Source of the DNA: Glycine soja
Lineage: Eukaryota; Streptophyta; Magnoliopsida; Fabales; Fabaceae
Assembly (NCBI RefSeq): GCF_004193775.1
Contig: NC_041009.1
Location: forward strand, 45,625,534-45,689,533
DNA: 64,000 bases
Direction of reading: 5' to 3'
The stretch's first letter is position 1; each line of letters opens with the position of its first letter. Below are positions 3,853 to 56,000 of the stretch, in pieces. Under the pieces are notes generated by a model that ran no database searches, was not told where the DNA came from, and was given only the letters and a program-made list of their open reading frames with translations. The position numbers were made by a program, and so were the translations under genes.

Positions 3853-6800
3853 TTATTTACATGTCATAAGCATGGAGTTTATGACATGCAATAAAAGACG
3901 GATACTAGAGAGATCAGCTCCAGTCATTGTAGGCAAGCTACGTTGATGATTCAGTATCTGATAGACTTGCTCAAAGATGGATCGTGTGTGCATTGCAATC
4001 GTCAGGTCTGACGGATTTATGGCAGCAGCCACATCTGTCAACCACGCAATCTTTCGCGGTGTATCGTTGTTAATATCACAGGCCAATTGCTGCAGAAGTG
4101 AAAGCAGTACACCTTGGCTTAAAGGAAGAGGAACCATTGACAAAAGTCCGTGTAAATCAACCTGCTTAACAGAAATGGAGTGATTCTGTTAATACTCAGT
4201 AGTCAATATTTATTTGATGAGAAAAATCTAACACAACTTTCAATTAATGCTTATAAAAAGCAATAAAATGTTATAAATTAAGTTAATGCTCCATCAACTC
4301 AAGTTGAATCAGGAGATTTTTATTGCAAACGGTTGTAACCTTATGCACAATTTTCCTTTCCTTAACCAATTGGAGTTAACAGTTGAAGAAGTGCATCCCA
4401 ACTGGAGATTTTACCCAAGCTGACCTACAGATTGGTTTAATTGAAAGATAAAACATCTCTGGCATACCTGAGTACATAACCAAGATACAATGGATACATC
4501 ACTTCTATGTAGAGCTCCAATGAAAGCCTCCTCATATTTCCGTTCAGAAATCAACCTAGCTAGCTCTTGTGTGGGATCTAGAGGCACCTCGACCTGATAC
4601 ACAATGCAAAATTGCAAGAGAAATTATTACCATGTATGATTGAAAGTAAAGTTTTCTATTTAACCCCTATCTACAACAACTAAGGCCCACAAGTGATTAG
4701 CAAAGTTACCCACCTTTTCATGAAGTAAAGGACCATTGTTTAGCTGGACAGGCAGAGTATTTAATGTGCCAGAGTTTGTTCTTGTAGCTGCGAGCGTCAC
4801 TAGCTTTCTCTGGCCCTCAAGCACTTCTCTACTCAAGGTTTGAGTAATTGATGATGCTGAATTAATAGAATCCTGCAAAATGCATCAAGAGGAATACTGC
4901 CATTGAGATACAAAGAGGGTGACAAGCTAAATAAGAGCAAAACTACCATGTCCAAAAGCTTTTTCTTGATAACCCATCATTTCTATTTAGCAGTGTGAAC
5001 TAAGCAAATAAGAATCTGCAAGTTTCGCTCAGTATGTTGGTGGTGTGATGACCCTAGCCCACTCAGCAAGTGGCAGTCATGCACACAGATGCAAATTGTT
5101 CTTGTAGAAAGTAGCTGCCTTTCGGTTAAAACAGAAGACCTACCAAAAAGCAATTGAAATACAAAAGGGCCTACAATACTGAACTAGAACTAATACCTTC
5201 TCATTCAAGACATTAATAACAAACAAAATACTATCATAAAAGCTTGATCTCTTAAATGTTTTGAGAGACCCAAATTAATTCATTAAGCTCTTCTTTTTAT
5301 GCATCCCACCAGTCAGATCATCTTTTCGCACAACTCATTTGATTATCCATCTCTCTCTAGTATAAAATGACTTGAGTAAGGCATTTTTTTCCAAATGAAA
5401 AGGTGAAGGTTGCTACAAAAGACCCCAAAGAAACAAATAGATTCAGTTACTCACCCTTAGTGTCATTGCCAACGAAGTGGGTGCAGATTCAAGGCGTTGC
5501 TGCACAGCAGTTGAATGTTCAACCATGCCTTTCTGAAATGTAGCGTCCACTTGCTCAAACATGGCTTTACACGACATCTCAAATGCAGGAACCACTGATG
5601 TTTCAAAACTGGATTTGAGTGCCTCCTACAGAAGAAATTAATTCACAGTAATGAGCAAATGTTCCCCAGATGAAATTACAAATACCACTAACTCACAGAA
5701 TGACAAAATATGAAGATACAGTACACTTAAGAGTGAAAGCAAGGCAAGTGACATACCTGAAGCACCTGTTTGCCAGTTGTCTGAAATTGCGCTTGGATTT
5801 GCCTAGCTACAGTAGCTTCAAGTTTTGAATTAACTGATCTATCAAGTTGGTTCACTGCCTTATCACCCACTCCTCTCTATGGCATAAAGTACCAATTAGA
5901 TCCCAGAAAGACAATTTATTAAGTTCATTCTAATTTTTATTAGATAAAAAAAATAGTGAGCAAACCTGGAAGGACTCCACAATAGAAGAAGATATTATTT
6001 TCTCCACAGCAGGAGACATTGCACGTACTACTGCTTGCCCAACTGAAGCCATTTCCTTCTTTACTGTTTTCTCCAGTATCACTGGTAGATCCTTATTCAT
6101 AAAGTTACTAATCAAACCTGTAACTTGCTGGATACGGTCTCGTAACAACTTTTCACTTTTTGCATTCTCCTCCTGAATTCGAGCCCACAAAGCATCACTG
6201 TTGGACTTGACAGCTTTTTCCATGTTTCTCCCTAGGGCAGCCTCAAGCCTTCTACCTTCTTTTGTCACTGGAACAGCAACCATCATTGTCATTTGCTTCT
6301 GCATCTCTTTTTGCATTGTCAATAACTGCCAAAATAAGAAGATCATGAATTATTAATGAGTCAAACTGCCCAAATATGAAAAAATACAATTCTTGCAATG
6401 TTACTTCAATACATTTTGTTTATAATCTTTCGATGAAGTTAAAAAGTAAACATAAGGAAATGAAAATCTCATTTGGATGGGGGTTTTCTAATGGACAAGT
6501 ACTTATAGAGACTAAAAACTCTAGCCTCAGAAGGACAGAAAAAAAAACAAAAAAACTGTTTTCAGCATTTTCTGAGAAGAAAAATTCTTGACTATTTTTA
6601 AAAAGATTACTTATAAAAAAACATTTTCAACAAAAAGTCCCTTTATACACATGCTAAATTGCTAATAAATTAAAATATAATGCATGATTAGCTATTCATC
6701 ATCTTGACCAACCAAAAACTCTTGAGAAATCACCTGATTGAGCGATTCTTGCATTGCCAGAATTTGGGGGAAAGCATTTTCAGCAGATGGGAGGCTAGAA

Positions 6801-9800
6801 TTTCCAATTGGTTCATTGAATGAATCAGTTGAATTGCACGCACTTGGAAATGAGGAAGATGGGCCTGCTGGTTGAGAATTTTTACCCTTCTGCCTTTTCC
6901 CTTTTGCATTAGGTGCAGGAGATGGTGGCACTGCCACAGATGTAGATGAGTCAGAAACCTTTTCATGGGCATCTTTTGCAAAGTCTTGGAGTCCATCCTC
7001 ACTGGCATCAAGCGGTTGAGCCAGTGAGTCCCCTCCTGTTGTTGAATCAAGTTGCCCAGGTTCCTCCATAAGGTATGTATCCTCAGATATCGAACAGCAT
7101 TCCCGGGCCATCTCAATACCAAGATCTGAAGCCTGAGAGCAAAATAATTTTTCTTTACTATCAGCAACTGAAGGTTGTTGAGACCCTTGCCCACCAAATT
7201 CATCACTTTGATTAGATCTTGTCTCACCCACCACTTTCACTTCCACTTCAGCATTACCTACATCAACAACATCCTGGATCTTTGCTTCTCCCTCATTTTT
7301 CCTATCAATTATATTAGTCTCAGAGGAGGAACCAGCTTTGGTGATCTCAGATGGTGTAATTAGATGAGTTGGTTGCTTAAACAAGACAGAAGGATTAAGT
7401 ACACTAGAAATGTCATCCTGCTTCATTTTCTTCTCATCATTCTTTGAATCACTATTCAATGGGTCAGACAAGTTCCTGTGAATTGTATCCATTTGTCTGT
7501 CTATTGAATAATCATTAACGGGATGGTCCCCAACATGATCACTCAAGTTGGATTGTGGACTTCTGATATCAGAGAGTTTCCTAGATAACCTTGGGCTCAA
7601 AGGAAGAGGTGAAGATGGAATACAAACAATATCAGCATCACTACTGGAAGGAGGTAATGTAGCAGGTTTAGCTTCAGTATTTGAACTGCTGATTCCTCTA
7701 GAAATAGGTGCCTCAACATGGCCAGAGCTTAAAGGGTATCGTGCCACAAGTCCACCCTCATTACTACTTGTTTGTAACATTGTTTTGGGAGCAGAACTGG
7801 CTAAAGACATTTCAGTTGTTCTACCTGCAGAAGAATCTAAAGAGTGGAATCCTTCAACAGTAATAGGATCGCGTGAAACACTGGAATCTGACTTCTCTAG
7901 TCCCACATTTTCATATGGCGGAGGCAAGCACTGAGCCAGATCCAAAGCATACTGCTGAATAGCCTGTGTCTGAACACAATAAACCTGAACAATATGTTCA
8001 CCATGAGGCAATATATCACTGGTCCCAGTAAAACTCAGAATGGGCATGGTCACAGTAAACTCGGCTATATAATCCATGCGTGTTGATTCTGGATTAGAAC
8101 CATATTCTAAATGCACAGCATATATAGCATTCCTCTGGGCATTTGCAAGTAAAAGCAGACCTGCATGAGACAATGCTGCAACTTGATTAAAGAATGCATC
8201 CTTAGAAGGTTGAGCTGAACTCTTCAACTCCAGTGTCTGAGTGCATTTCCATGATTCAGTGTCACTTGGGAGCAGCCAACCTTCGTCACTTGCTGAGACC
8301 CAAAGCTTTACTTCCCGATTTTGTGGTCCCTACACAAGGTATCAATTATAATATATAAACAAGTAAAAAAAATATCACTAGACTAGTCACATATGATAGT
8401 TCTGTGGAGGGTCATATGATAGAAACAATGAACCACAAACACAGACCTCTGTTAATTTTTTAAGCTTTTCAATGTAAATAAAATTGATTGATTACTGAGT
8501 ATTATCACAAAAAGTGTACTACCTCAATATTGGAAGACACAAATTCAGATAAAAGACATGATCTACTAATGTTGATGAATACACTTACTGCTGTGATAAG
8601 GACAATATGATCAGGCTGGTGAGGAGCAGTAAAAAATGTAGCAGAAAAAACCGGATTCCCATCATGTGGTCTCAAAATCGCAAGTGGTTGTGTCTTGCGA
8701 TCTTCCCAGATCTTTATCTGTCACATTTGAGATCAGAGACAAATATGATTGAGACATCTATAACAAATTAAACAAATAACAAATAAGCACAACATAGACA
8801 TGCACAAGGATGTTACACTCAATTGATACCATATTTAAATTAATAAAGCGTACAGGAGGTAATTTTCTCAGCATTTTTTCCCATGTTTCCAAATGATCCC
8901 AATCTGTTACACAACTTAAATAAAAATGATAAGGTTTAAAGTCTGTAAAATAAAACAAACTTAAAATAACTATACCACCACTTTTCCCCCAGTTTCATAA
9001 CAACACTAAGATGTTTTTTAAGTGCATTTGGTGTTATCCTCCTATCAAAATTGGAGATTCACCTCAGTATCCAACGCCAACTTTAAATGCTGACCTTTGT
9101 TGTAAAAGTTGCCAAGGTGAAGCTGTAATTTTAATTAGAGAACATCACCAAAAACCTTTAAGGAACAGCTTTATCCAAGTATTGTCAGTTTCATATTTGT
9201 TCTTCATTCTTGTCCTCACTACTTCAACGGTAACTGCATCTACTATATTGTTTTTGGGCAATACTTGCATGACCACACTGCCTATAGGAACAATTAAGAC
9301 AATATTAAAATAACTTCAGCTTCACCAAGTTTCACTGCAGACCAATGTTATCAAATAGCAGTGAAGGTGCTATGGTGTGACAAAATTTGTACAAAACACT
9401 ATGTAAGGACATTGGTGTGGCAGCTTATGAAAACCACTATTTGTTTGGCAGCCATGGCAGAAACAGTGACCACGGCAGAAAAACACTACTTTTAAAAAGT
9501 ATTTTTAAAAGGAAATGAACAGTCTCCATCATTCCGCTTGAAAATAATTATTGAAGAGAACCAAATCTTCTATAGCACGCATTCATAACTCCCTCCAGTC
9601 ACGTAAGAAAATAAATTCTGCATTGCATATTCCCCACCACCATCTCTTGCAAGAGAGTTCATGGGAGTCACCACCAAGCATCTGGTGTCTAAAACATGGA
9701 AAGAAATTTCCTTCTATAACTCTTCCTCTTTACTTTCCCTTTGTTTCTTTCTCATACCTTTTGCTTTCTAGTTTATTGTTTTTCATGTATGTCATCATTT

Positions 9801-12627
9801 TTTCTTTTATTAATCATATCTTTTCATGATTATTATTATTTTTTATTATAGCTGGCATGCTTTCGCCATGGTCTGCAATGCCATCCCCCATATTTTTATG
9901 ACAAACTTTTTAGCTTTCCATCATCCACCATTAATCATAACGCTTCAGAATTTATTATTATTGTAATTTAATAAATCTATGCTTTTTGACTGGTTGTGTA
10001 TGTAGGCATTGTGTTCATACAAGAATTGCTCATTGCTTTCTCTCTTCACTCCTATCCTTTGATGCACCCACATATTTGGGTGCTTGGTTTTATAGCAAAA
10101 ATACCAATTCAGGCTAAAAGAAAACCATAGATATTAACGAAACATTCATACGACTGCATTATTTATCCTGATCAGAAAAATGCTTTAATAAACACTGTCA
10201 TCTTTCAACAAAAAAAAAAAGAATTAATTACAACAGAAAAATACAAACCGTGCCATCTTGTGACGCAGATACCAATCGATTGGTCATCCATTGGCACATC
10301 GACAAATCAGTCACCTCCCCGTCATGTGTGCCTACCAGCTGAACCCCATCAATGAGCTTATCCACAGGACATCTCAGAGGATCATCTACCACAAAGGCTT
10401 CACCATTTCCAACTTTTGTGGTATCAATCCTTAAAACATGTTTTCCCATACCAACTATCAAAATCTCCTGTTAGAAAAGGTTGAATTAATATAAAAAGAA
10501 TACAGGGAAGAAAGGTAAACCATAGCTTCAGGTTTTTGGAAATGAGAACAATAAAACAGGAGATTATGAGGCAAATACTTGTTTGTGGCAGTGCCAGCAA
10601 ATTTGAGGATGTTCAACTTTCTCCTCCCCCACTATTTGAACAGCAATAACAATATTGGCAGTAATTTGAGGCTTATCTTCATCATCTGGGCCTTCAGTTA
10701 TCTTCCACATGTAGACACGGCCATCTGTGCCAACACTGTATAGAAAGCATGTTCCCATAATTCATAGACAAAACAAACTACGCCATTTAAAATTTTGAGG
10801 CTACAAAAACTACCTAGCCAAGAGATGAACATCTTCAGCAAAGAACGCCAAGTCTGTGACCCTCTGACAAGGGGAAAAAAAGATTAATCAAAGGATAAAT
10901 TCGTTATCCTTTAAATATTTTTGCCATTAAAAAAACATACATAACAGTATAAGTGTGAAATAGGGAAACAACTCACGAGTTGAAAGGCAACAAGCCTGCA
11001 AGCAACCTTTGAATACATACAAGAACTCTACTACAATGAATAAAAGAAAATGCTGCCTTTTCACCTAGAATTATACTATAGCAGCACCACAAAGTAAATT
11101 TCACAACGAAACAAAGCAATGCTAGTGGGGAAATCCAACATAGAATTGTTCCCATGGCCAATGTTGCTATCTGCTATTTTTGCGTCCTATGAACTTGAGT
11201 TGAGCCTCAACAAAGTAATAAAATCGCCATCAATATAACATGTTTGGACCAGGATTATTATTCAAATTTCAGATTGTCCCCCTTCCTTACAAGATTATGG
11301 ACGCAAAAACAACCTCAAATATTAAAAATAATAGTATGAAATCTTAGTCATTAAACCCATAGACAATATCATAATCTTTTATATCAGGATATTAAAATCT
11401 AACCCTTCTCAAAGTACATGATAGATCAACACTCTCTCAAGGGACCTAGAAACAAAAAATTTCTGATTTACATTAAAATAAAACATTATGGAATCATTTA
11501 ATCTACATAAAACCAACCGCCCAGTGGGAAAAGCCTTTGATGCTATCATACCATATCTGATCTTATAAACAAGCGACAATTAACCATTTCTAAAATTTAT
11601 CTCCAAAGTTTTAACTGCAGTCGCAGTACTGGTTTCCTCATGTTCCTTGATATTGTGGCAAAACGCAGACAAATGCGTCTAATGCAGAAACCATTGGGGT
11701 CACAGACACCCCAAAAAGCTCGATCTTGAGGCGAAAAAAAGTGGTCTTCCTTGTGTTCATGGACATCGCAGAAATTGCAGACAAATGCACCCGGATGCAG
11801 CCACAATTGGGGTCGCAGACACCCCAAAAAACGTTGTTTATCCCTTTTTTTTGTCTGTTTTTTGCTCACCTATCTTATTATCTAAAGCATTGCTCCATAT
11901 GATTTTTTATGTTTCTTAATTGCAAAACCAGCACAACAAGAATGTACCCAATACACTGAAAACAAACTCAGAAAGCAAAGCAAACCTGAGTGTGGCCTCT
12001 GAGCAAGGACCTGACAGCAGTGTGAATATTAAGCACCCTAATGTTCCCCTGTTTCAAGCCATAGCATATATACGACTTATTCACGGCAATCTGCCTCCCT
12101 AGAACCGGGTTAGGATCCGACCCGTATTTCGTAATCGGAGCCACCTCGAGCTGGGGCTGGACCTCGCCGGGCAGCCTCACGTCGACGTCGTAAGTCACGA
12201 GCTCCCCGGCCAAGTGTCTTCCCTTGGGGACCTTACTGCTGGGGAGGCGCGTGAGGGCCGCGGCAGCGGCGGAGGCAGCGGCGAGGACGGCAGAGGAGGA
12301 GACGGGGACGAACTCGGGCGGCGGGGGCTGCGGCGGGGCGGGGGAGGGGTTACCAAGGAGGGCCATGAGGCGGGCGCCGGCGTTGGGGTTGGAAGGGGGA
12401 GGGATGGGTTGGGTGGGGAAGGAGATGGAGCGGTGGTGGGGGTGGGGAGGGAGAGGGAGGTCGAAGTTGGGGAAGTGAAAGGGGGGAGGGTAGGAGGAGG
12501 AAGGGTTATGGTTAGGGTTTGGGTTAGGGTTAGAGGAAGGTGGTGGTGGTGGTTGGGGGTTGAAGAAGGAGTGCATGTCGAAGGGAATGGTGGGTGGAGG
12601 AGGGTTGTGGTTGTTTGGGGAAGCCAT
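3853..12627 (-). CDS. VCS: VARICOSE / enhancer of mRNA-decapping protein 4, complete gene
   Basis: Scaffold of the cytoplasmic decapping complex that links DCP1 and DCP2 in P-bodies. Twelve exons (-): 12627-11986, 10863-10814, 10735-10579, 10467-10249, 8717-8589, 8329-6734, 6325-5966, 5876-5757, 5625-5455, 4872-4714, 4593-4468, 4161-3853. All junctions have GT-AG borders and keep phase, giving 1,345 aa, close to the known length of Arabidopsis VCS. Residues 1-130 are Pro/Asn-rich. WD40-like repeats span about 200-480 (motifs [31 protein letters not shown]). A Ser-rich linker fills most of exon 6, a region phosphorylated by SnRK2 kinases in the family. A coiled coil opens exon 7 (MQKEMQKQM), and a helical C-terminal domain ends exon 12. 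The ATG at 12627 begins MASPNNHN, and GC-rich exon 1 follows. A truncated copy lies at 22.7-27.7 kb. Confidence 0.95.
8718..10248 (-). other. VCS intron 4 (1.5 kb) with a repeat-like core
   Basis: The intron lies between exon 5 (WD40) and exon 4. Around 9350-9490 and 9840-9890 are stretches with repeated 'catggcag/tcgccatgg' phrases that look like decayed transposon ends; the family was not identified. The plus-strand open frames at 9011-9313 and 9551-9829 are conserved in the duplicate only because the whole intron was copied, and they show no domain. A piece matching about 9950-10160 was copied a third time to 30889-31104. Confidence 0.45.
10864..11985 (-). other. VCS intron 1 with a degenerate direct repeat
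   Basis: 1.1 kb intron. A unit of about 53 bp that includes the near-palindrome GGGGTCRCAGACACCCC occurs twice (11696-11712 and 11809-11825, 113 bp apart). It is preserved in the duplicate copy near 26763 and 26876. The minus open frame through it (11597-11869) is a by-product. The repeat looks like a transposon remnant; no family was recognised. Confidence 0.5.
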
Positions 12628-14750: not shown

Positions 14751-14753
14751 TCA

Positions 14754-15819: not shown

Positions 15820-16200
15820 TCTCCCAAGAATGAGGGTAAAATATACTCCCAATCTAAAGGAAAATATATACACAAAATGGAAGTTGGAGTAAAAAATAAA
15901 ATGGACAAAATATACTGTAAGACAATGGTTATCGTTTCATCAGCAGTCATGACAGTGATCTTCATCTTCAATTCAACCGTTTTTTTTTCTGTCTGTCTCT
16001 AGATTTGTGACGATGATGTTGTTGAAGCAAAAGGTAAAAGGGAAAAAGACAAAGGCTTGGCTAATTTTCTATGGTAGCTGTGCTTAGCTGAGGTGAAAAG
16101 AGCAAAGTAAAGACTGTTGGAAGACTAGAAATCCTTTTAAGACTGTTGGTGAGGTTTGGTTCAATTGGAATGATGGATGGAGTGGTGACTTCTCGACTAA
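15820..16200 (-). pseudogene. DDI1 remnant: intron 10/exon 11 edge joined to exon 1 and promoter
   Basis: 15820-15937 matches the exon 11 acceptor region and adjoining intron of DDI1 (about 45420-45538). It runs directly into sequence matching DDI1 exon 1 and its 5'UTR/promoter (from about 50636). The copy has therefore lost roughly 5.1 kb, including exons 2-10. Only about the first ten codons (MKITVMTADE region) survive. It marks the left edge of the duplicated block that carries the second At5g43822-like copy. Confidence 0.82.
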
Positions 16201-18297
16201 CAAAATTATAAATATATTTGTAAAAAGATAAGAAATACAAAATTAAAAAGGATAAAATTTGTAATATATCTCTTTTTTCAGATTATAATTTAATAATATA
16301 TTTATTTTTTAGTTTATTATCTATTTTTTTATTTTAATATTTAACATTTTAAAATTTTTGTTTTTAATATCAATTATTAATTTTTATTTATTAAGTAATG
16401 AGATGACAAACTAATAGAATAAAATTATTATTTAAAATTAAAAATAAATAAATTACAAGTATGAAAAACATATTTAAATCAATTGAAAAATAATGAAAAA
16501 TGTAATTTTGACACTATCATCTAGTTAGATACTAGTATCATTTATGATAATGATAAAGGATTTTGAGTATTAACTCTCTATTCTTTATATATAAATCAAA
16601 ACAATTATCTTAGTTGAGAGTATTTTTTTTAAAATTATATTTTAATGATAATATTTTTAAGAATGATTTTTAGATTTTTTTAAAAAGATTATCTCTTTTA
16701 ATTTTTTATTTTGATTTTTAATTATATTTTAATACTTCTAGATTTAATTACACTTATATCTTACAAAAAAATTATTTTTTCTATCTTTGATTGAAAAAAT
16801 AAATAAGGGATGATAAAAAAAGTTAAGGATACTTTTTTATCCCTTATAAGTTCTTTTGGTATATGCCTTTTATAATTTTCTTACTTTAAAATTTATCATT
16901 ATATTTTTATTTTAGAATATTTCATTTTTATATATTATTTTATTTGATGTACTTTGTTATGTTACAAGATTTTATAGAAAGGGAAAATAGAGAAAGTGAA
17001 TATGAATAACTTTTATTACTAAAATTTTCTACCATCATAAGAAAGATTACCGGATTCTATATCGAATTTCATATAGTCAAACAATTAAAATTATAAGATA
17101 GAGATCGAATAGTTCAAATATCATTTCAGAAAATTCACATAATAATCTCAATTCATGAATACATAGTTACAAACAACCCAAATTCAAATCTCACAAGGCT
17201 ATCCACTTTTTATTTTTAACTTCTTTTTTTTATTTTTAACTTCTTTTTCTACAACAATGAAATCTTATCTCATTAAGTAAAATCAACTACATAAATTACA
17301 TGTCTTTTAACACGATTAAAAACTAAAATATCAAAAATTTCTTTACACCTAATCAAATTTGATATGCAAATTTAAAATTTAATGTATACATATTATCAAT
17401 GTAAAATACATTTTTGCAAATATGAAATGATCACATCATATTAAATAAATAAGTTCATACAGTAAAATGATCACATCATATTAAATAAATAAGTTCATAC
17501 AGTAAAATAATCAAATCTTTTGTGTAAAAATATTTAAAACTAGTAGAGTATATGAATTAAACTGCCAAATTTATCCCTCATTTTTTCATCATTGGAACAT
17601 CGTTGTCGTCATAGCTGGAGAAGAACTTTCATATTCTATTTTTAGCTGATTTTGCCTCATTGAATGATGTTGCTTTGTTGCAAGGATACTGGATAGAAAA
17701 CTTTATGCAAATTGTATTCTTGTCATAATGTATACAATCATTTTACTTATATCGTACTTGAAACCAAGCTAAAAAAGAAACACAAAGAAAATGGACGAGA
17801 GAAAGACCCGTAACTCGTACAGCAAAACCAATAATCTTGTTATCGATGTCAAAGTTTGAATAACATAATCTAAAGGCAATCGGAATTAATCCCTAATCAA
17901 ATATAAAATTTCAATTTCCAAGGATTAACTATATTTTTAGTTTCTCTAAATATACAAATACACACATTTAGTTCCTAAAAAAACTGCTCCTTAAGGTTCC
18001 TTATATTTGCAAACGTGCATCTTTAACCCAAATCCTAATGATATATTAGTTTTCTATAATATAAAATCCTAATCTATTCAAAACAAATTAAAAGTCCTAA
18101 TATGATAATCTATTTCTTACAAAAATCATTAAATAAAGATAACATTTCTAAAATAAAGTAACAATCCTTAAATAACAACAATAATCTTAACTCATTCTGC
18201 ATCAACAATCGTTCCTGGAAGATCAAAAAGCTCCCTTGATGTATAAAAGTTCAGGCATCCCCTGGTCCCAAGTCAACATCCATAGTAGAGAGAATCA
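16200..18297. other. AT-rich spacer downstream of the chimeric gene
   Basis: Copy of about 50900-53050. It holds a 37-bp tandem repeat around 17428-17510 ('atgatcacatcatattaaat' twice) and many poly-A/T runs. No gene, RNA or complete transposon was recognised. Confidence 0.5.
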
Positions 18298-21200
18298 TCA
18301 ACTCAGTTCCTCGGCAAATATCACATCAAATACAAATTGAACTGTGGCCAAAAGTCATACAACAAGAAATGACATTAACATGTGTTTAACTCAGCAATGA
18401 TTAGTGTAAATAGATTAAATGATAGTTACCCCAGAATGAAAGGAATAAAAAAGGGCAGAACTCCAAGATACTATATTATTAAGACGAAGTCAGGCCTGTA
18501 TCAAGGTGATATCAGGTCCTGTCTTTAGGAAACATCCAAGAAATGCAGAGAAAAAAAAAGGAAACCAACACTAAGTAATTTGAGAGTGCCCAAACTCTTT
18601 CCCAAATGGATCTCAGTATTTCAAGGGACTAATCTTAGGCTTTCATCCAAGGAATACCCAAATTCTTCTTTCTTCTTACCTACACCTTAGTTATCTTGGG
18701 GTCCTATCATTAAACAACACCAAAGCCAACATATCTTAAAATTGCTTTATTGTACTATATATTTCTCTCATGTAAAGACAATGTATAATAGTAGATTCTA
18801 TTCATTAACATCAAAGTAAATGTGAACTTCAAATTCAAAAAGTTAACAATACAACGACCGTGTTCTAAGGATCATATGAGAGGTCCCAGAAGCATATAAA
18901 GGTCTAATTCAAAATTAAGCATTCTTAATGATTATCATAAGTAAAACATGAAATTATTAATGGTGTGGACATGCATTATAGATTCTACCTCACACATAAT
19001 TCTAGCATACCTTCCACAGTTTGGAGATTGGGTTGATCAACCAAGAGTTGCTGAAGTGCACCAAGATCACTGTCACTGCAATGAAGTTAATGCAAAGTGA
19101 TCAATACAATGAAACATTGGACACCAACAAATGTACAAGCATTAGAAAATGAAAGGCAAGCATCATGAATAAAGTACATGATAAATCTAGGTATCTCTGT
19201 TTATATAGAAATGAATACAAGTGCAAATGAGTATACAGATCACTAGATTGCCTCTTTGCCTTTGTTTCCCTTTTCTTTTTCATCATCATTCCCTGTTATC
19301 ATTTTGACTCAAATTCTTCTAAAGATTAAAAAACCAGACTGCTTTTGGAGCAGATAGACAAAGTCCAGATGCCACTCTATTTGCAAATCAGGTAGCGGAA
19401 GATGTAACAAAAAAATAAAAGAAAATAAGGTTCTTGGAAAAGTATCTTGATAGAAATGGTTTTGATGCTAAATATATAGAAGGTGAATTTCCTGCTACTT
19501 TTTTTATGATTATGAATAACAACAAAAGTATATTATGGTTTAGGGAAAATAGAAAATAAGGAGTTAGGGAAGGGGAATGTTTTCTATTTTTGCAATTCTA
19601 TAACTGATGTGGAGAGCTCATAAAAGTATCCAAGTTGGTTTAAAGAAAGGTAAGGTTTCACACCTTTACTTCACTGATGATTCAGATCTCTTCTTGAAGG
19701 AGTATAATGATTCCTTTGTGAATGTTTTACTTCTGATTATACTAAGTCATGAAGACTGTTTATGTTTAAAGATAAGTTTGATTAAGAGAGGACCAGCAAG
19801 TTTGAATGGTGATAAAAACAATTCTTTTAAAGCTCCTGCAGCTGCTTCTCAAGTTTACAGGCTTATAGGACCCTCTCTTTTACTTTATCACACATATATA
19901 TAGTCAACGGAACAAAATGCACACAAGCACATGTGTGCACATCACACACACAATTATGACATTTGAATGGTTAAACTATAGCAATGGTATTTTCACACCT
20001 GGGCTTCAAGGCAATTTCTGATAGTGCTGAGATCACTGATGACTTTAATAAATACCTATTACAAAAGAAACAACTAGTAACTATTTTTTCTAAAAAAGTC
20101 ATTCGATCAAAATGGTGTTATCAGAAGTAAAATCAATGAAAAAAAAGGGGACTTCTGTGCAAAGCTTTCAAGCAGAAAATTGTATTCTAATATCAATAAT
20201 CATTTTGAGAGTTTAGCAGCTGTTTCACCCAACAGATAATAAAGATTGATGATTAGCAATCTTGACTATTCCTACCTAAAAAAAAAGAAAAAGAGAACAG
20301 AAGAGGTGTTGCATTTTTTTTTTAATTTTCAAGAACTTCTTGCCCAGCAATGAAACTAAATTTAATTGGTCAAAATTAAGTCAAATGTTCTTATTCAGTA
20401 TCAGTAGTAGATGCATAACAATTAAGTGAAGGAAGCAGAGAGATTGCAATCAGTTATGGGCTTCTCAGAACTTGAGAATCACACCCCTATTGAATATTGG
20501 CAACTCCATTTTAGAATATTATCCTCATGATAAAATCTCCAATTCTCCAACCCTAGAAGACTAGTAAAATATTTGGTTTGGGTAACAAGGGGAAAGCTCT
20601 CAACTATGGGCGGCCAAACTCTCCACTCCTTTTCTTTTCAGTTAAAAATCTCCTCCTATCCTTTTTTTATTATCTTAGTTCCTTCAACCAATTTATGCTA
20701 CCAACAGGTTGGAAAACTGCTATGGAACTCTATAGATCACTAAAGACATGGTGTTTCATTTGGCATTCTAGAGGACATCTTTCTTACTGAAATAGAGCTA
20801 ATTTAGATGGTTTAGGCGTTGAGTTTTCTTTTTTTCAATTTTCCTTTTTTAATTATTCTTTTGATAAAAGAAGGCACTTGCTCTTGAAAGGGAGTCAAAG
20901 TGCATGAAATATGGTGTTGAAAAAATAAGTATCTCAGCTTCAAACATAAAATGCAATTCAAAATGTTAGCATGTTCATTAGACTTCCTGCCAATCTGTCA
21001 AGTTCTTGAATCATGTCATTTGATGCATTGAAAATTAAGTTTAAGTTAATGCATTTGTGGGTTACATAAAACACAAAATAATATGTTAAAAAAAAGTCTC
21101 AATTCACAACCATTAATCCTTACTCAGAGTTGTATATCTCATGTATAAACATCAGGCTATCCAAGCAATAGATAAGACTAGGTTTGATGCCAATTTGTTG

Positions 21201-24200
21201 CTGCAATTGTTTCATGTTCAGAATACAAGAACCACCTTTCACTTGTTGTCTACTATCATGGTGAATTTTGTCAAGAGATAAGACAATACAATGAAATTCT
21301 TCCCTGAAAGTCCAAATTCAAATTTAATGAAATTAGTCACGAAAACATTAGTCATAAACTTAAAATGCCTAACAATATCATTACATATCACTTTAAATTG
21401 AAAATATTGCAGAGCTGAATAGAAACTCACAGAGTCTTTCGCATGGAAACCAAGATGTTCCTCAAAGATTCAATCTGCTTTACCAAAAGAGCATCTTTCA
21501 TGCCACTGGCACAATTTAAAACACCATAATTGTTGGAATTTTGAAGCACCTGCTTACAAAAAAATCATAATTCATACAGTTACTTACTTCAAGTCCTCCT
21601 ACCCTAGTGATTTCAGAACTACAACATTAGCAATATCAAGGTCAAAGCAGTAAATAGGGTAAAAAAAAATTGTAGACCACAAGTATCCTCCATGGAACAA
21701 TCCTGCTTGAATCAGGTAAGACCATCATAAGCGGCAATAGCTATCCGTCTAGTATTTAACGCAATTGCATACCCAATACTTGAATTCGAGACTATTACTA
21801 AGGTAAATTAAAATAAAAAAATTATAAGTATACAGTAAAAGTATAAGTGAAATTACCTGCAACCTATCAACAATATGGAAAGCATTCCTAAACTGAGAAA
21901 TTAAGCAAGATTGAAGCTTATCCCATCGACTCATTGCTTCCCTAACTTTCCTGAATTTTGACTGAAATTTTTTAACTATCGCTTTCATTGTCAATCCTGA
22001 ACTGACCAGTGATGAGCCAGCAATAAGCCTTTCACAGAGAAAAAAGTAAATCTTTAGTAACAATTCAAAATCGTGCTTTGAAGTGTAACATGTTTAAAAG
22101 TTTGTGTTTGATTTATGATTCAAAGTGTTTTGAAGCGTAAGATCATAACTCGCAGCAGAACCGGACTTTTCACGAGTGTGTAACTTTTAGATGTGTCAAA
22201 GTGAGCCAATCTCACTCAATTGGGTTGAGCAAAAAGTGGCATAATGGCCTTATATATGTTGTTAATAGTATTGTAATATTTAAATAGCTAGCCATTCAAA
22301 TGGCAATTACAGAGCTAATACAAAATTACAGTTAAAGTTATCTTGATAATTACACTGAATGCTCATTACCCAAATGCACTTAGTTAAGCTAACTAATAAT
22401 GCACCATAGTTAATCACTTAATCTTATGATGAACTTACTGAATAAGCACTTATTTAAGCTGATTGATTACCCAAAATGCGCCCAGATATACTTAGTTAAC
22501 TAACACTCTCATCAGAATTAGTGTCATTACTGTGAAAAATTGAAAACTTAAAAGAATCCGTTAGAGTTATTAAGAATGTTGAAATATGTGCGGATAGAGA
22601 TTATGAACGAATCAATTCCAGATAATTGAATTTAGAATGAACGGAAATTACAAAACACAACCGAGTTTCAGATTGGGTATTTTTTAGGAAAATAGAAGAA
22701 AAAAAGAAACGCGCGAACCTGGGTGAGAGGGAAACCGACCGTAACGTAGCAGGTTTAGCTTCAATATTTGAACTGCTGATTCCTCTAGAAATAGGTGCCT
22801 CAACATGGCCAGAGCTTAAAGGGTATCGTGCCACAAGTCCACCCTCATTACTACTTGTTTGTAACATTGTTTTGGGAGCAGAACTGGCTAAAGACATTTC
22901 AGTTGTTCTACCTGCAGAAGAATCTAAAGAGTGGAATCCTTCAACAGTAATAGGATCGCGTGAAACACTGGAATCTGAATTCTCTAGTCCCACATTTTCA
23001 TATGGCGGAGGCAAGCACTGAGCCAGATCCAAAGCATACTGCTGAATAGCCTGTGTTTGAACACAATAAACCTGAACAATATGTTCACCATGAGGCAATA
23101 TATCACTGGTCCCAGTAAAACTCAGAATGGGCATGGTCACAGTAAACTCGGCTATATAATCCATGCGTGTTGATTCTGGATTAGAACCATATTCTAAATG
23201 CACAGCATATATAGCATTCCTCTGGGCATTTGCAAGTAAAAGCAGACCTGCTGCATGAGACAATGCTGCAACTTGATTAAAGAATGCATCCATAGAAGGT
23301 TGAGCTGAACTCTTCAACTCCAATGTCTGAGTGCATTTCCATGATTCAGTGTCACTTGGGAGCACCCAACCTTTGTCACTTGCTGAGACCCAAAGCTTTA
23401 CTTCCCGATTTTGTGGTCCCTACACAAGGTATCAATTATAATATATAAACAAGTAAAACAAATATCACTAGACTAGTCACATATGATAGTTCTGTGGAGG
23501 GTCATATGATAGAAACAATGAACCACAAACACAGACCATTGTTAATTTTTTAAGCTTCTCAATGTAAATAAAATTGATTGATTACGGATTATAATCACAA
23601 AGTGTACGACCTCAATATTGGACAACACAAATTCAGATAAAAGACATGATCTACTAATGTTGATGAATACACTTACCGCTGTGATAAGGACAATATGATC
23701 AGGCTGGTGAGGAGCAGTAAAAAATGTAGCAGAAAAAACCGGATTCCCATCATGTGGTCTCAAAATCGCAAGTGGTTGGGTCTTGCGATCTTCCCAGATC
23801 TTTATCTGTCACATTTGAGATCAGAGACAAATCTGATTGAGGCATCTATAACAAATTAAACAAATAACAAATAAGCACAATATAGACATGCACAAGGTGT
23901 TACACTCAATTGATACCATATTTAAATTAATAAAGAGTACAGGAGGTAATTTTCTCAGCATTTTTTCCCATGTTTCCAAATGATCCCAATCTGTTACACA
24001 ACTTAAATAAAAATGATAAGGTTTAAAGTCTGTAAAATAAAATAAACTTAAAATAACTATACCACCACTTTTTCCCCAGTTTCATAACAACACTTAGATG
24101 TTTTTTAAGTGCATTTGGTGTTATCCTCCTATCAAAATTGGAGATTCACCTCAGTATCCAACGCCAACTTTAAATGCTGACCTTTGTTGTACAAGTTGCC

Positions 24201-27200
24201 AAGGTGAAGCAGTAATTTTAATTAGAGAACATCACCAAAAACCTTTAAGGAACAGCTTTATCCAAGTATTGTCAGTTTCATATTTGTTCTTCAATCTTGT
24301 CCTCACTACTTCATCGGTAACTGCATCTACTATATTGTTTTTGGGCAATACTTGCATGACCACACTGCCTATAGGCACAATTAAGACAATATTAAAATAA
24401 CTTCAGCTTCAGCAAGTTTCACTGCAGACCAATGTTAGTGAAGGTGCTATGGTGTGACAAAATTTGTACAAAACACTATGTAAGGAGCATGGTGTGGCAG
24501 CTTATGAAAACCACTATTTGTTTGGCAGCCATGGCAGAAACAGTGATCACGGCAGAAAAACACTACTTTTAAAAAGTATTTTTAAAAGGAAATGAACAGT
24601 CTCCATCATTCCGCTTGAAAATAATTATTGAAGAGAACCAAATCTTCTATAGCACGCATTCATAACTCCCTCCAGTCACGTAAGAAAATAAATTCTGCAT
24701 TGCACATTCCCCACCACCATCTCTCGCAAGAGAGTTCATGGGAGTCTCCGCCAAGCATCTGGTGTCTCAAACATGGAAAGAAATTTCCTTCTCTAACTCT
24801 TCCTCTTTACTTTCCCTTTGTTTCTTTCTCATACCTTTTGCTTTCTAGTTTATTGTTTTTCATGTATGTCATAATTTTTTCTTTTATTAATCATATCTTT
24901 TCATGATTTTTTTTTTATTAAAGCTGACATGCTTTCGCCATCGTCTGCAATGCCATCCCCCATATTTTTATGACAAACTTTTTGGCTTTCCATCATCCAC
25001 CATTAATCATAACGCTTCAGAATTTATTATTATTGTAATTTAATAAATCTATGCTTTTTGACTGGTTGTGTATGTAGGCATTGTGTTCATACAAGAATTG
25101 CTCATTGCTTTCTCTCTTCACTCCTATCCTTTGATGCACCCACATATTTGTGTGCTTGGTTTTATAGCAAAAATACCAATTCAAGCTAAAAGAAAAACAT
25201 AGATATTAACGAAACATTCATACCACTGCATTATTTATCCTGATCAGAAAAATGCTTTAATAAACACTGTCATCTTTCAACAAAAAAAATGAATTAATTA
25301 CAACAGAAAAATACAAACCGTGCCATCTTGTGACGCAGATACCAATCGATTGGTCATCCATTGGCACATCGACAAATCAGTCACCTCCCCGTCATGTGTG
25401 CCTACCAGCTGAACCCCATCAATGAGCTTATCCACAGGACATCTCAGAGGATCATCTACCACAAAGGCTTCACCATTTCCAACTTTTGTGGTATCAATCC
25501 TTAAAACATGTTTTCCCATACCAACTATCAATATCTCCTGTTAGAAAAGGTTGAATTAATATAAAAAAGAATACAGGGAAGAAAGGTAAACCATAGCTTC
25601 AGGTTTTTGGAAATGAGAACAATAAAACAGGAGATTATGAGGCAAATACTTGTTTGTGGCAGTGCCAGCAAATTTGAGGATGTTCAACTTTCTCCTCCCC
25701 CACTATTTGAAGAGCAATAACAATATTGGAAGTAATTTGAGGCTTATCTTCATCATCTGGGCCTTCAGTGATCTTCCACACGTAGACACGGCCATCTGTG
25801 CCAACACTGTATAGAAAGCATGTTCCCATAATTCATAGACAAAACAAACTACGCCATTTAAAATTTTGAGGCTACAAAAACTACCTAGCCAAGAGATGAA
25901 CATCTTCAGCAAAGAATGCCAAGTCTGTGACCCTCTGACAAGGGGAAAAAAAGATTAATCAAAGGATAAATTCGTAATCATTTAAATATTTTTGCCATTA
26001 AAAACACATACATAACAGTATAAGTGTGAAATAGGGAAACAACTCACGAGTTGAAAGGCAACAAGCCAGCAAGCAAACTTTGAATACATACAAGAACTCT
26101 ACTACAATGAACAAAAGAAAATGCTGCCTTTTCACCTAGAATTATAGCAGCACTACAAAGTAAATTTCACAACGAAACAAAGCAATGCTAGTGGGGAAAT
26201 CCAACATAGAATTGTTCCCATGGCCAATGTTGCTATCTGCTATTTTTGCGTCCTATGAACTTGAGTTGAGCCTCAACAAAGTAATAAAATCGCCATCAAT
26301 ATAACATGTTTGGACCAGGATTATTATTCAAATTTCAGATTGTCCCCCTTCCTTACAAGATTATGGACGCAAAAATAACCTCAAATATTAAAAATAATAG
26401 TATGAAATCTTAGTCATTAAACCCATAGACAATATCATAATCTTTTATATCAGGATATTAAAATCTAACCCTTCTCAAAGTACATGATAGATCAACACTC
26501 TCTCAAGGCACATAGAAACAAAAAATTTCTGATTTACATTAAAATAAAACATTATGGAATCATTTAATCTACATAAAACCAACCGCCCAGTGGGAAAAGC
26601 CTTTGATGCTATCATACCATATCTGATCTAATAAACAAGTGACAATTAACCATTTCTAAAATTTATCTCCAAAGTTTTAACTGCAGTCGCAGTACTGATT
26701 TCCTCATGTTCCTTGATATTGTGGGAAAACGCAGACAAATGCGTCTAATGCAGAAACCATTGGGGTCACAGACACCCCAAAAAGCTCGATCTTGAGGCGA
26801 AAAAAAGTGGTCTTCCTTGTGTTCATTGACATCACGGAAATTGAAGACAAATGCACCCGGATGCAGCCACAATTGGGGTCGCAGACACCCCAAAAAACGT
26901 TGTTTATCCCTTTTTTTTGGTCTGTTTTTTGCTCACCTATCTTATTATCTAAAGCATTGCTCCATATGATTTTTTATGTTTCTTAATTGCAAAACCAGCA
27001 CAACAAGAATGCACCCAATACACTGAAAACAAACTCAGAAAGCAAAGAAAACCTGAGTGTGGCCTCTGAGCAAGGACCTGACAGCAGTGTGAATATTAAG
27101 CACCCTAATGTTCCCCTGTTTCAAGCCATAGCATATATACGACTTATTCACGGCAATCTGCCTCCCCAGAACCGGGTTAGGATCCGACCCGTATTTCGTA

Positions 27201-27658
27201 ATCGGAGCCGCCTCGAGCTGGGGCTGGACCTCGCCGGGCAGACTCACGTCGACGTCGTAAGTCACGAGCTCCCCGGCCAAGTGTCTTCCCTTGGGGACCT
27301 TACTGCTGGGTAGGCGCGTGAGGGCCGCGGAAGCGGCGGAGGCAGCGGCGAGGACGGCAGAGGAGGAGAAGGGGACGAACTCGAGCGGCGGGGGCTGCGG
27401 CGGGGTGGGGGAGGTGTTACCAAGGAGGGTCATGAGGCGGGCGCCGGCGTTGGGGTTGGAAGGGGGAGGGATGGGTTGGGTGGGGAAGGAGATGGAGCGG
27501 TGGTGGGGGTGGGGAGGGAGAGGGAGGTCGAAGTTGGGGAAGTGAAAGGGAGGGTAGGAGGAGGAAGGGTTAGGGTTAGGGTTAGGGTTAGGGTTAGGAG
27601 ACTGTAAATAAATAAAAAAATAAAAAATTAATGTATCTAGAGATTGTATCGTTGACAT
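18298..27658 (-). CDS. Predicted chimeric gene: VCS 5' half fused in frame to the At5g43822-like protein
   Basis: Twelve predicted exons (-): 27658-27053, 25934-25885, 25806-25650, 25537-25319, 23805-23677, 23419-22719, 22028-21857, 21549-21431, 21303-21124, 20055-19999, 19075-19011, 18341-18298. They add to 2,499 nt, an unbroken 832-codon frame plus stop. Exons 1-6 copy VCS (Pro/Asn-rich N-terminus and WD40 part). Exon 6 crosses the duplication junction at 22741 into the former 5'UTR exon and ends in CCC AG before its old donor. The next exon begins with G, completing an Arg codon, reads 13 codons of former 5'UTR, then the whole 198-residue second protein (residues 635-832). The ATG at 27658 is not the VCS start; it comes from spacer DNA and adds about 19 hydrophobic residues. 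The VCS Ser-rich linker and C-terminal domain are missing. Every copied exon keeps length, phase and splice dinucleotides. Expression is unproven; it may be an open pseudogene or two separate transcription units. Confidence 0.7.
19430..19880 (+). mobile_element. Fossil reverse-transcriptase fragment in an intron
   Basis: Plus-strand open stretch, antisense to the host intron, reading [20 protein letters not shown]. It resembles the 'ISHLFFADD' active-site block of plant non-LTR reverse transcriptases, with the first Ala changed to Thr. It then follows the usual spacing to a SLKI-like motif ([10 protein letters not shown]). The same fossil is at about 54300-54680, so it predates the duplication. 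No other domain survives. Confidence 0.5.
22741..22746. other. Fusion breakpoint between the two duplicated segments
   Basis: To the left the sequence follows the 5'UTR exon of the At5g43822-like gene (native 58000-58026). To the right it follows VCS exon 6 (native from about 7654). The six bases GTAACG are compatible with both parents (GTGACG and GTAATG), so the join falls in short microhomology. This is the pattern expected of end joining or template switching. Confidence 0.85.
27567..27598. repeat. (GGGTTA)n microsatellite at the duplication's internal deletion edge
   Basis: About five perfect GGGTTA units, read on the minus strand as alternating Pro-Asn codons of VCS exon 1. In the native gene the same place (12509-12533) is an imperfect version. 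The array sits directly against the 620 bp deletion that removed the VCS start. It is coding sequence, and the hexamer differs from the plant TTTAGGG telomere unit. Confidence 0.85.
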
Positions 27659-28945
27659 TTCTCTTTAATTCTAACAAAAATTGATACTATTATTTTACTA
27701 AAAATGTTGTCCGACAATCTCCAAAAGAATTGAGCAAAATAGGTCTCAGTTTCGCATTTGATAGATTGAAAGCATTATTCCCTCCCTTTAAATTTTATGT
27801 ATAAGAAAAATAAATAAACAAATGTTAGATAACAACATAGTTTTTGTCATACTTTTTAATACATTTTTATTATTATATGATATTATTTGAAAATCATCAT
27901 TTTTTAGTTCTCTTTAGGTCTTATTTTATTAGTCTTATTTTTTTGTAATTTTTTTATGGAAAAAACATTATATTTTATTTGAAAATGTGTGTTAGATAAT
28001 GTGTTGGTATGATTTTTCTTGTTTTTGTTTCATGTTTCAAGTTAAACTAGCATTTAATAATAAAAAATACTTTTTTATCCATGCTAATTGAATACGTCAT
28101 TAAAAAATTTACAATACTTACATATTTGAGAGCTACACCCGCTTGTTAATAACGTGGTATATGTGCATGAAGTTTTTTTTTTAAAATAATATTGTATAAT
28201 AGGTGTTATTGTGAATTGTGAGTTGAATGTGTGTGTTTTGATGTAGCTTTGAGTGTTTTAGGTTTTGACAGGGTTAAGATTTTGAGTAGATTTTCTGGTT
28301 TAACTTTGATTGCCTATTCTAGATTATATCTTTTGCAAAACTGACAACTTAATTTAAATGTCTTAAGTTTTTGTTTTTCTTTGCAGATGATTCTTTTTTT
28401 TCTTTATAAGTTAGTGTTTAGCAGCTGTAGAATAAGTGACATGTATTTATATGCAAAATGCAATTTTTGTTATTAATTTTTAAGCACTAAATAAATGAAT
28501 TGACCTTGGAAAGAGTTTTTTCCAACTCGGTTGGTGGAGTAGAGGGTTTGGTGGTTGGAATAAAGGGTGAGAAACTGAAGGAATAACTAACTAGAAAAAA
28601 CATTGTAAGAGTTAAAAGTTGAAACTCTTGTATCTGAATTGGTTTAGCGATCAATAGGGGTAAGTAGAAGAAACTAAAGGGGTTGTAAAGTGTAAATTGT
28701 ATAATAGAAGAGTTGGTTTAGAGACTCGAGAGATGATATATGCTCGAGAAAGCCTCTAAAGAAAGGAAAACTCCTAAATCGCTGTCCAAATTTATACTCA
28801 GAACATGATCAGCACCACCAACCAACCTAAATCAAAGAAACATATTCCTTAAAAACAAACTCTCAGGGCCAAATTTATGGGACTCTTAAGGCATTTCTAA
28901 TGCTAGATTGCAACGTTGATGTTTACTCTTAAGGCATTTATTGAC

Positions 28946-53053: not shown

Positions 53054-56000
53054 TCAACTCAGTTCTTCAGCAAATATCACATCAAATACAAATTGAACTA
53101 CGGCCAAAAGTCATACAGCAAGAAATGACATTAACATGTGTTTAACCAGCAATGATTACTGTAAAAACTTTTTCATACTATCATCGTATCATGTGTTTGC
53201 CACAAACAGATTAAATGATAGTTACCCCAGAAAGAAAGGAATAAAAAAGGGCAGAACTCCAAGGTACAATATTATTAAGACAAAGTCGGCTCTGCATCAA
53301 GGTGATATCAGGTCCTGTCTTTCTGAAATACGCAGGAACTACAAAGAAAGAAAAAAAACAGGAAACCAACTCTAAGTAATTTGAGAGGTGCCCAAACTCT
53401 CCCCCAAATGGATCTCAATATTTCAAGGGACTAATCTCTGGCTTTCAGCCAAGGAATACCCAAATTTTTCTTTCTTCTTACCTACACCTTAGTTATCTTT
53501 GGGTCCTATCATTAAACAACACCAACGCCAACATATCTTAAAATTGCTTTATTGTACTAGAGTATCTATATATTTCTCTCAAGTAAAGACCATGTATAAT
53601 TGTAGATTCTATTCATTAACATCAAAGTAAATGTGAACTTCAAATTCAAAAAGTTAACAATACAACAATAGTGATCTAAGGATCATATAGGAGGTCACAG
53701 AAGCATACAAAGGTCTAATTCAAAATTAAGCATTCTTAATGATTATCATAAGCATAACATGAAATTATTAATGATGTGGACATGCATTATACATTCTACC
53801 CCACACATAATTCTAGCATACCTTCCTCAGTTTGGAGATTGGGTTGATCAACCAAGAGTTGCTGAAGTGCACCAAGATCACTGTCACTGCAATGAAGTTA
53901 ATGCAAAGTGATCAATACAGCACAGAACGAAACATTGGACACCAACAGATGTACAAGCATTGGAAAATGAAAGGCAAGCATCATGAATAAAGTACATGAT
54001 AAATCTTGCTATCTCTGTGTATATAGAAATGAATACAAATGCAAATGAGTACACAGATCACTAGATTGCCTCTTTGCCTTTGTTTTCCTTTTCTTTTTCT
54101 TCATCCTTCCCTGTTATCATTTTGACTCAAATTCTTCTAAAGATTAAAAAACCAGAATGCTTTTAGAGCAGGTAGACAAAGTCCAGATGCCACTCTATTT
54201 GCAAATCAGGTAGTGGAAGATGTAACAATAAAATAGAAGAAATTGGGATTTGAGTAGGGTTCTTGGAAAAGGATATTGATAGAAAAGATTTTGATGCTAA
54301 ATATATAGAAGGTGGATTTCCTGCTACTTTTTCTATGATTATGAATAACAACAAAAGTCTATTATGGTTTAGGAAAAATAGAAAATAAGGAGTTAGGGAA
54401 GGGGAATGTTTTCTATTTTTGCAATTCTGTAACTGTGGTGGAGAGCTCATAAAGGTATCCAAGTTGGTTTAAAGGAAGGTAAGGTTTCACACCTTCACTT
54501 CACTGATGATTCAGATCTCTTCTTGGAGGAGTATAATGATCCCCTTGTGAATGTTTTACTTCTGATAATACTAAGTCATGAAGACTGTTTATGTTTAAAG
54601 ATAAGTTTGATTAAGAGAAGACCGGCGGGTTTGAATGGTGATAACAAAATTCTTCTACAGGCTCCTGCGGCTCCATATAGCACCCTCTCTTTTACTTTAT
54701 CACATACATATAGAGTCAAACGAACAAAATACACACAAGCACATCTGCGCACATGGACACGCAGTTACACACACACACAATTATGACATTTGAATGATTA
54801 AACTATAGCAATGGTATTTTCACACCTGGGCTTTAAGGCAATTTCTGATAGTGCTGAGATCACTGATGACTTTAATAAATACCTATTACAAAAGAAACAA
54901 CTAGTAACTATTTTTTCTAAAAAAGGCACTCGATCAAAATAGTGTTATCAGAAGTAAAATCAATGAAAAAAAAAGCACTTCGGCACAAAGCTTTCAAGCA
55001 GAAAATTGTATTCCAATATCAATAATCATTTTGAGAGTTTATCAGCTGTTTCACACCCAACAGATTGATGATTAGCAATCTTGAATTTTCCGACCAAAAA
55101 AAAGAAAGAGAAAGAGAAAAGAAGAGTTGTTGCATTTTTTTAATTTTCAAGAACTTTTTGCCCAGCAATGAAACTGAATTTAATTGGTCAGAAATAAGCC
55201 AAATGTTCTTATTCAGTATCAGTAGTAGATGCATAACAATTAAGTGAAGGAAGCAGAGAGATTGCAATCAGTTATGGGCTTCTCAGAACTTGAGAATCAC
55301 GCCCCTATTGGATATTGACAACTCCATTTTAGAATTTAATCCTCATGATAAAATCTCCAATTCTCCAGCCCTAAAAGACTAGTAAAATATTTGGTTTGGG
55401 GTACAAGGGGAGGCAGGGTAGAACATATTGACATGCAACTGTTTACACTGCATCATTTAAATAGTCTCAGTTAGTGACTTGAGGTTGGTCTAGTTAAAAA
55501 TTTACCATTGACATGAATGGCATAGCTCTAACTACAGAGTGTCCTTTGGTTTAGATTCCACAAACAGGAAAAAACACATAACAAGGCACTCCCAACTCAC
55601 TTTTCTCAAAGCAAAAACTTTAAAATTGACAACATCTGTGTTGTACCCAATGCCCATACCCATACAAGTTGCAAGATAGGTACACAACTATCCCTATCCA
55701 AAGAGTACAAAGTCACACTTTGGAGCTCCACTCCTTTTCAATTTTTTTTTATCTAGACCACAGGTATCTTCCACTAGAAGTAATCATATTTGAGCCGGTA
55801 GGACCACTATGGGCCGCAAAGCTCTCCACTCCTTTTCTTTTCAGTTAAAAATCTCCTCCTATCCTTTTTTTATTATGTCAGTTCCTTCAACCAATTTATG
55901 CTACCAACAGGTTGGAAAATTGCCATGGAACTCTTTATAGATCACTAAAGACATGGTGTTTCATTTGGCATTCTAGAGGACATCTTTCTTACTGAAATAG

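What the first reader, a model, noticed from the sequence alone, without database searches (positions are those of the whole stretch)
18298..27658. An 832-codon chimeric gene created by duplication: VCS WD40 half fused in frame to an unrelated helical protein
Two duplicated segments meet on the same strand so that VCS exon 6 reads through the junction into the former 5'UTR exon of the At5g43822-like gene. It keeps that exon's donor (22718) and ends in phase 2 (CCC AG). The next exon starts with one base completing the codon, and its former 5'UTR has no stop before the old ATG. Exon lengths sum to 2,499 nt with no interruption. It would pair the EDC4 WD40 region, without its regulatory and C-terminal parts, with a complete 198-residue protein. 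Such a product could compete with VCS for partners or localise the second protein to decapping complexes. The intact frame across 12 exons is seen; the function is speculation.
Basis: partly seen in the sequence, partly recalled or inferred. Interest (0 to 1): 0.92.

Follow-up and report, generated by a model that had tools for sequence, protein, structure and literature searches.

The report
Tandem-duplication chimera, probably a dying gene
When a stretch of a wild soybean chromosome was copied next to itself, the front of an mRNA-decay gene was joined to a ribosome-assembly gene in one readable frame; the copy has lost the normal start of the first gene and now looks mostly like a decaying leftover rather than a proven new protein.

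Summary
Twelve exons sum to 2,499 nt and read 832 residues without a stop, joining a VCS/EDC4 WD40 half to a complete copy of OPNR (AT5G43822, plant C1ORF109 homolog needed for 60S assembly). The genome matches Glycine soja W05 by assembly statistics. One tandem duplication explains it: the flanks are collinear and the breakpoints lie in VCS exon 6 and an OPNR 5'UTR exon.

A working chimera is less likely. 637 bp with the native VCS ATG and 5'UTR, probably core promoter too, are missing; the ATG at 27658 is former upstream DNA. VCS-half introns differ by 2.1%, the rest by 6.4-7.0%, so gene conversion probably refreshed that half; it has since changed at an unconstrained rate. The OPNR half shows partial past constraint, but a dead OPNR copy on contig C20 shows the same signature. 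No VCS-OPNR fusion appeared among the listed hits of three protein searches. A G. max protein looks like a copy/native recombinant, in which the chimera would be deleted. Verdict: a neat duplication chimera, probably not functional; expression untested.

The parts
3853..12627 (-). native VCS/EDC4 gene (ATG at 12627, stop ending at 3853), full length
   Evidence: tblastn of P0002 finds its exons down to 3856, several 3' exons at 100% identity; start and stop read
22741..27597 (-). copy of the VCS 5' half (part of exon 1 to part of exon 6), 97.4% to 7654-12533
   Evidence: Pfam Ge1_WD40
27598..27614 (-). scar of the 637-bp deletion that removed the VCS start codon, 5'UTR and probably core promoter (native 12534-13170)
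   Evidence: the promoter is inferred from position
27615..28942 (-). copied upstream flank of VCS, 92.6% to 13171-14510; holds the accidental in-frame ATG at 27658
22741..22746 (-). tandem-duplication junction: VCS exon 6 joined to an OPNR 5'UTR exon, about 2 bp (AC) of microhomology
   Evidence: overlap of the two BLAST matches and side-by-side sequences
18298..22028 (-). OPNR copy (6 exons holding its 198-aa coding region), complete and open
   Evidence: Pfam CA109-like E 5.4e-49
15936..22746 (-). whole OPNR-side duplicated segment, collinear with 50631-58025
53054..59286 (-). native OPNR gene with two 5'UTR exons as used in protein P0122 (about 59286-59172 and 58130-57998)
   Evidence: exon limits read by eye

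Best explanation
A tandem duplication on soybean chromosome 8 spanned from VCS exon 6 to the OPNR 5'UTR exon. Its junction fused VCS exon 6 in frame to the 5'UTR exon of an OPNR copy. At birth it would have been driven by the copied VCS promoter and could have made the fusion, or OPNR by downstream initiation. Later the VCS body was overwritten by gene conversion from native VCS, a 637-bp deletion removed the start codon, 5'UTR and probably core promoter, and constraint was lost. Today it is most likely an unprocessed pseudogene, or a weakly expressed relic, whose frame is still open because the VCS half was recently refreshed and the OPNR half was constrained for part of its life. Shown: duplication geometry, deletion, divergence steps, substitution patterns. 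Inferred: early function, conversion as the cause of the step, promoter loss, order of the later events, present silence.
For: Collinear order of five paired segments with breakpoints in two same-strand genes. Copy-native divergence: VCS introns 63/2946 (2.1%), upstream flank 85/1321 (6.4%), OPNR introns 204/2908 (7.0%); Fisher p 1e-11 and 8e-20 for the step, 0.51 between flank and OPNR. VCS-half coding changes 20 in the copy against 6 in native, introns 23 against 37, p=0.0019; exons 2-6 alone 12 against 4, p=0.012. Copy changes R139S, V150A, E403K and L406V hit residues kept in 116-118 of 119 homologs, and K534N a position that is Lys or Arg in all 119 (P0002, which shares the first two, was left out of the 119). 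Start codon and 5'UTR deletion. No VCS-OPNR fusion among the listed database hits.
Against: No stop, frameshift or splice-site loss in 832 codons. For the OPNR half this has P about 0.005-0.02 under neutrality for the whole branch, and nonsynonymous changes are about half the neutral number (8 against 16, P=0.019). The C20 pseudogene of similar age has four coding or splice defects, the copy none. In exons 2-6, nonsynonymous changes alone (6 against 2) do not reach significance (p=0.065). No expression data could be consulted.
Confidence: 0.7

Rival explanations
1. A working chimeric gene: the 832-aa protein (or a shorter one from Met76) is made and links the VCS WD40 propeller to OPNR, competing with VCS or moving OPNR to decapping bodies.
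For: Intact frame, all splice sites kept; both Pfam domains present; OPNR half below the neutral nonsynonymous rate.
Against: VCS half unconstrained since conversion with changes at strongly conserved residues; start and 5'UTR, probably promoter, deleted; no such protein among listed hits; a dead OPNR copy gives the same OPNR signal.
Confidence: 0.08
2. Only the OPNR part still matters: a transcript from a cryptic start makes a second, nearly normal 198-aa OPNR; the VCS half is merely leader sequence.
For: The constraint signal is confined to the OPNR half; loss of OPNR-complex components is lethal in Arabidopsis reproduction (abstract of PMC12332008), so an extra dose could be visible to selection.
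Against: Changes E2K, E18A, S37F and E183V at conserved positions; the copy lacks OPNR's own upstream region and all but the last ~27 nt of its 5'UTR exon; the C20 pseudogene has a similar nonsynonymous:synonymous ratio, 13:8 against 8:8, p=0.52; no separate protein of this copy among the 120 OPNR hits listed of 187.
Confidence: 0.17
3. Assembly artefact: the segment order is a misjoin or false duplication.
For: Two near-identical VCS bodies 15 kb apart could confuse assembly; no reads could be checked.
Against: No N in the window; OPNR introns differ by 7.0% and flanks by 6.4%; residues of the copy's exons 1-3 recur in a G. max protein, P0002.
Confidence: 0.05

Closest known systems
Chimeric genes formed by tandem duplication (Drosophila yakuba; PMC5460883, abstract read)
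   Same: Same birth mechanism: a tandem duplication whose ends fall inside two same-strand genes joins the 5' part of one to the 3' part of the other.
   Different: Here the 5' start was later lost, one half was probably gene-converted, and expression is unknown.
VARICOSE / EDC4 / Ge-1 decapping scaffold
   Same: Ge1_WD40 domain nearly complete (profile 18-325 of 329).
   Different: Lacks the whole part after the middle of exon 6 and the native start.
OPENER (OPNR, AT5G43822), homolog of human C1ORF109
   Same: Complete 198-aa CA109-like protein, 190 of 198 residues as in native soybean OPNR.
   Different: Carries 7 private residue changes, several at conserved sites; own upstream region lost.
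Unprocessed duplicate pseudogenes such as the C20 OPNR copy
   Same: Partial copy, lost 5' end, neutral-like change in the VCS half.
   Different: No disabling stop, frameshift or splice loss yet.

Membership tests
Tandem-duplication chimeric gene | breakpoints inside two same-strand genes, with collinear duplicated flanks | tested here: met
Tandem-duplication chimeric gene | in-frame open reading frame across the junction | tested here: met
Tandem-duplication chimeric gene | expressed as a chimeric transcript or protein | not testable with these tools
   no RNA or proteomic data at hand; no VCS-OPNR fusion among listed database hits
VCS/EDC4 | Ge1 WD40 region | tested here: met
   PF16529 E 1.1e-21
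VCS/EDC4 | C-terminal region after the WD40 half | tested here: not met
   the copy matches P0002 only within residues 1-532 of 1253
OPNR/C1ORF109 | full CA109-like domain | tested here: met
   PF15011 positions 1-161 of 161, E 5.4e-49
OPNR/C1ORF109 | membership of the OPNR-OAP1-OAP2-CDC48D-CIP111 complex | not testable with these tools
   needs a bench test
Pseudogene | stop, frameshift or splice loss | tested here: not met
Pseudogene | loss of native start and promoter | tested here: met
   637-bp deletion at 27597/27615 removes ATG and 5'UTR; that the core promoter lay within it is inferred from position
Pseudogene | coding changes at the neutral rate | tested here: inconclusive
   met for the VCS half; OPNR half about half the neutral rate, but so is the dead C20 copy

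The most novel reading that the evidence does not exclude
The locus is a living fusion gene, older than cultivated soybean, in which an mRNA-decapping scaffold propeller carries a 60S-assembly factor, kept open by gene conversion from native VCS; and its recombination with native VCS creates accessions that lose the fusion and carry a VCS with an altered 5' end, a structural polymorphism tying decapping to ribosome assembly.
Probability: 0.07. Interest if true: 0.7.

Novelty: new member of a known kind. Interest (0 to 1): 0.33.

Why it matters
If the fusion is expressed it would be a new physical link between mRNA decapping and ribosome assembly in a crop relative. Even if dead, the locus shows how an open frame can mislead: gene conversion restores one half while the other coasts on past constraint. 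The copy/native recombinant suggested by one G. max protein points to a testable structural polymorphism at a decapping gene.

Tried and rejected
Two separate duplication events: rejected, because five paired segments are collinear and one event gives the order; 14511-15549 and 28943-31684 did not match each other, so part of the tract is unexplained. That the low OPNR nonsynonymous rate proves function: rejected after the C20 pseudogene control. Purifying selection on the VCS half: rejected, changes in the copy equal or exceed the intron rate. Solved structures: OPNR gave no significant chain (best E 0.42), the VCS half only generic WD40 proteins (122 sequences matched, 60 shown, none named EDC4). 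Rfam: nothing at the gathering score in the window. Literature: nothing on this soybean locus in what was listed: 2 papers, 7, 0, and 8 of 670 (the rest not seen); the library lacks most subscription papers. Rooting the OPNR copies with the C18 relic: near-star, 2, 1 and 1 sites for the three groupings among 269.

Full report
WHAT IS THERE. It sums to 2,499 nt, 832 residues and a stop, with GT..AG at every intron, and the exon-6 read-through, donor and linker are as described. Pfam finds Ge1_WD40 (residues 161-463) and CA109-like (641-804) in the one product. The second protein is not anonymous: AT5G43822 is OPENER (OPNR), a homolog of human C1ORF109, part of an AAA+ ATPase complex for 60S ribosome assembly; depletion of the complex is lethal in reproduction (PMC12332008; passages, abstract).

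WHERE. The window is G000:C8:45625534-45689533 of a 1,013,641,977-base genome in 1,119 contigs. This fits Glycine soja W05: 1013.2 Mb, 1118 scaffolds, N50 50.7 Mb and N90 38.4 Mb (PMC6418295, passages), against contigs of 50,695,596 and 38,407,759 bases. The species is therefore inferred, not given.

HOW IT AROSE. Self-comparison gives native VCS 7654-12533 to 22741-27597 (97.4%); VCS upstream 13171-14510 to 27615-28942 (92.6%); 15550-15827 to 31685-32012 (81.8%); 15824-15939 to 45417-45536 (94%); and 15936-22746 to 50631-58025. All are in the same order and orientation. A single tandem duplication running from VCS exon 6 to the OPNR 5'UTR exon, followed by deletions in the first copy, yields this order (inference). 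The stretches 14511-15549 and 28943-31684 do not match each other. The junction has about 2 bp of microhomology. On contig C18 the VCS homeolog and an OPNR relic lie about 2.5 kb apart, with the block that carries the OPNR relic inverted relative to VCS, so the two genes were linked before the duplication.

THE MISSING START. Native VCS starts at 12627. The copy lacks 12534-13170, 637 bp, with 17 bp in their place: start codon, 5'UTR and about 31 codons are gone. The stretch reaches 543 bp upstream of the ATG, so the core promoter probably went too (inferred). The ATG at 27658 is upstream DNA that happens to be open for 20 codons; stops precede it in frame. An acceptor-like TTTACAG lies beside the scar, so splicing from a cryptic upstream exon is conceivable (seen in the sequence only).

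TWO AGES. X is the copy, N the natives. X-N divergence is 63/2946 in VCS introns, 85/1321 upstream and 204/2908 in OPNR introns; JC distances 0.0217, 0.0673 and 0.0737, against 0.108 for VCS introns between N and its C18 homeolog. So the duplication is about 0.6-0.7 of the age of the C8/C18 split, and the VCS body was homogenised at about 0.2 of it (differences p about 1e-11 or less). Gene conversion from N is the simplest cause.

SELECTION, VCS HALF. Polarised with C18, over 576 codons (the first codons, where the alignment is ambiguous, gapped columns and the 3-nt copy insertion were left out), the VCS half gained 13 nonsynonymous and 7 synonymous changes in X and 3 and 3 in N; introns gained 23 in X and 37 in N. 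X coding DNA is not slower than its introns (1.16% against 0.79%, p=0.21); N is (0.35% against 1.27%, p=0.001); the contrast has p=0.0019. In exons 2-6 alone it is 12 against 4 (p=0.012), though nonsynonymous changes alone, 6 against 2, give p=0.065. Against 119 homologs (the 120 listed without P0002), R139S, V150A, E403K and L406V fall at residues kept in 116-118 of them, K534N at a position that is Lys or Arg in all, and the Ala insertion is in none.

SELECTION, OPNR HALF. Over 198 codons polarised by the C20 copy, two codons were unresolved; the two changes in codon 37 were given to X and codon 84 was left out. X then has 8 nonsynonymous and 8 synonymous changes, N 1 and 4. Under neutrality 16 nonsynonymous are expected (P=0.019), and an undamaged frame with splice sites has P 0.005-0.02, depending on the indel rate assumed. 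This looked like evidence of function. But the C20 copy, plainly dead (premature stop at codon 21, 1-nt deletions in exons 9 and 11, lost exon-11 acceptor), has 13 nonsynonymous or stop changes against 23 expected (P=0.018) and a ratio indistinguishable from X (13:8 against 8:8, p=0.52). The signature therefore shows a constrained past, not a functional present. In favour of the copy, it has no such defects although its age is similar (rooting is near-star on 269 sites).

DATABASE. The chimera's listed hits are EDC4-type proteins (829 at E<=0.001, 120 listed, none of these with PF15011; only the 7,992 candidates sharing most words were scored). Only 5 proteins of 458-1456 aa carry the OPNR part, none with the EDC4 WD40 domain. 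Of 187 OPNR-length hits, 120 were listed; the nearest is native soybean OPNR. Clustering at 90% could hide a close variant; shorter annotated fragments are not excluded.

A RECOMBINANT. P0002, a 1,253-aa Glycine max EDC4 protein, carries all 8 copy-derived residues up to position 245 of the chimera and none of 6 copy-derived features from position 403 on (five substitutions and the Ala insertion); at position 85 it has the native residue. Residues 839-999 and 1151-1253 match native VCS at 100%; the matches between them run into introns. It begins at the residue corresponding to Met76. That is what crossing-over between copy and native would give: it would delete about 15 kb with the chimera and leave VCS with the start-less 5' end (inference). 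Conversion or a collapsed assembly could give the same protein; the DNA could not be reached.

VERDICT. Most likely it is a decaying duplication chimera. An OPNR-only function remains possible.

Noticed in passing
window 57991-64000 (- strand): Protein P0122 (512 aa, listed without source, as the tool does for proteins of the window) fuses a PNO1-like KH-domain protein to native OPNR through OPNR's 5'UTR exons; it looks like a read-through annotation of two neighbouring genes (the name PNO1 is recalled).
   Followed up: partly
window 15047-15655 (+) and 31685-32037 (+): PNO1-like copies, apparently partial or decayed; 15550-15827 and 31685-32012 pair up within the same tandem duplication.
   Followed up: no
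G000:C20:26743424-26755012 (L012, L013): OPNR pseudogene whose 5' match ends at native 58075, near the chimera's breakpoint (58025), and abuts DNA matching native 48.4-48.9 kb.
   Followed up: partly
L023, L024, L025 (C19, C6, C3): An OPNR intron/exon fragment, native about 53678-54058 (on C19 and C6 joined to 56368-56439; on C3 two pieces of it), sits on three chromosomes at about 95-96% identity, suggesting capture by a mobile element.
   Followed up: no
window 33820-35147: Three head-to-tail copies of a 439-bp unit, 99-100% identical.
   Followed up: no
window 27564-27600 and 12500-12535: VCS exon 1 encodes a (Pro-Asn)n tract with telomere-like CCCTAA repeats; the 637-bp deletion ends at it.
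   Followed up: partly
P0002 (G. max protein): Hybrid EDC4 with copy-like residues in exons 1-3 and native-like residues from exon 6 on, suggesting a structural polymorphism in soybean.
   Followed up: partly
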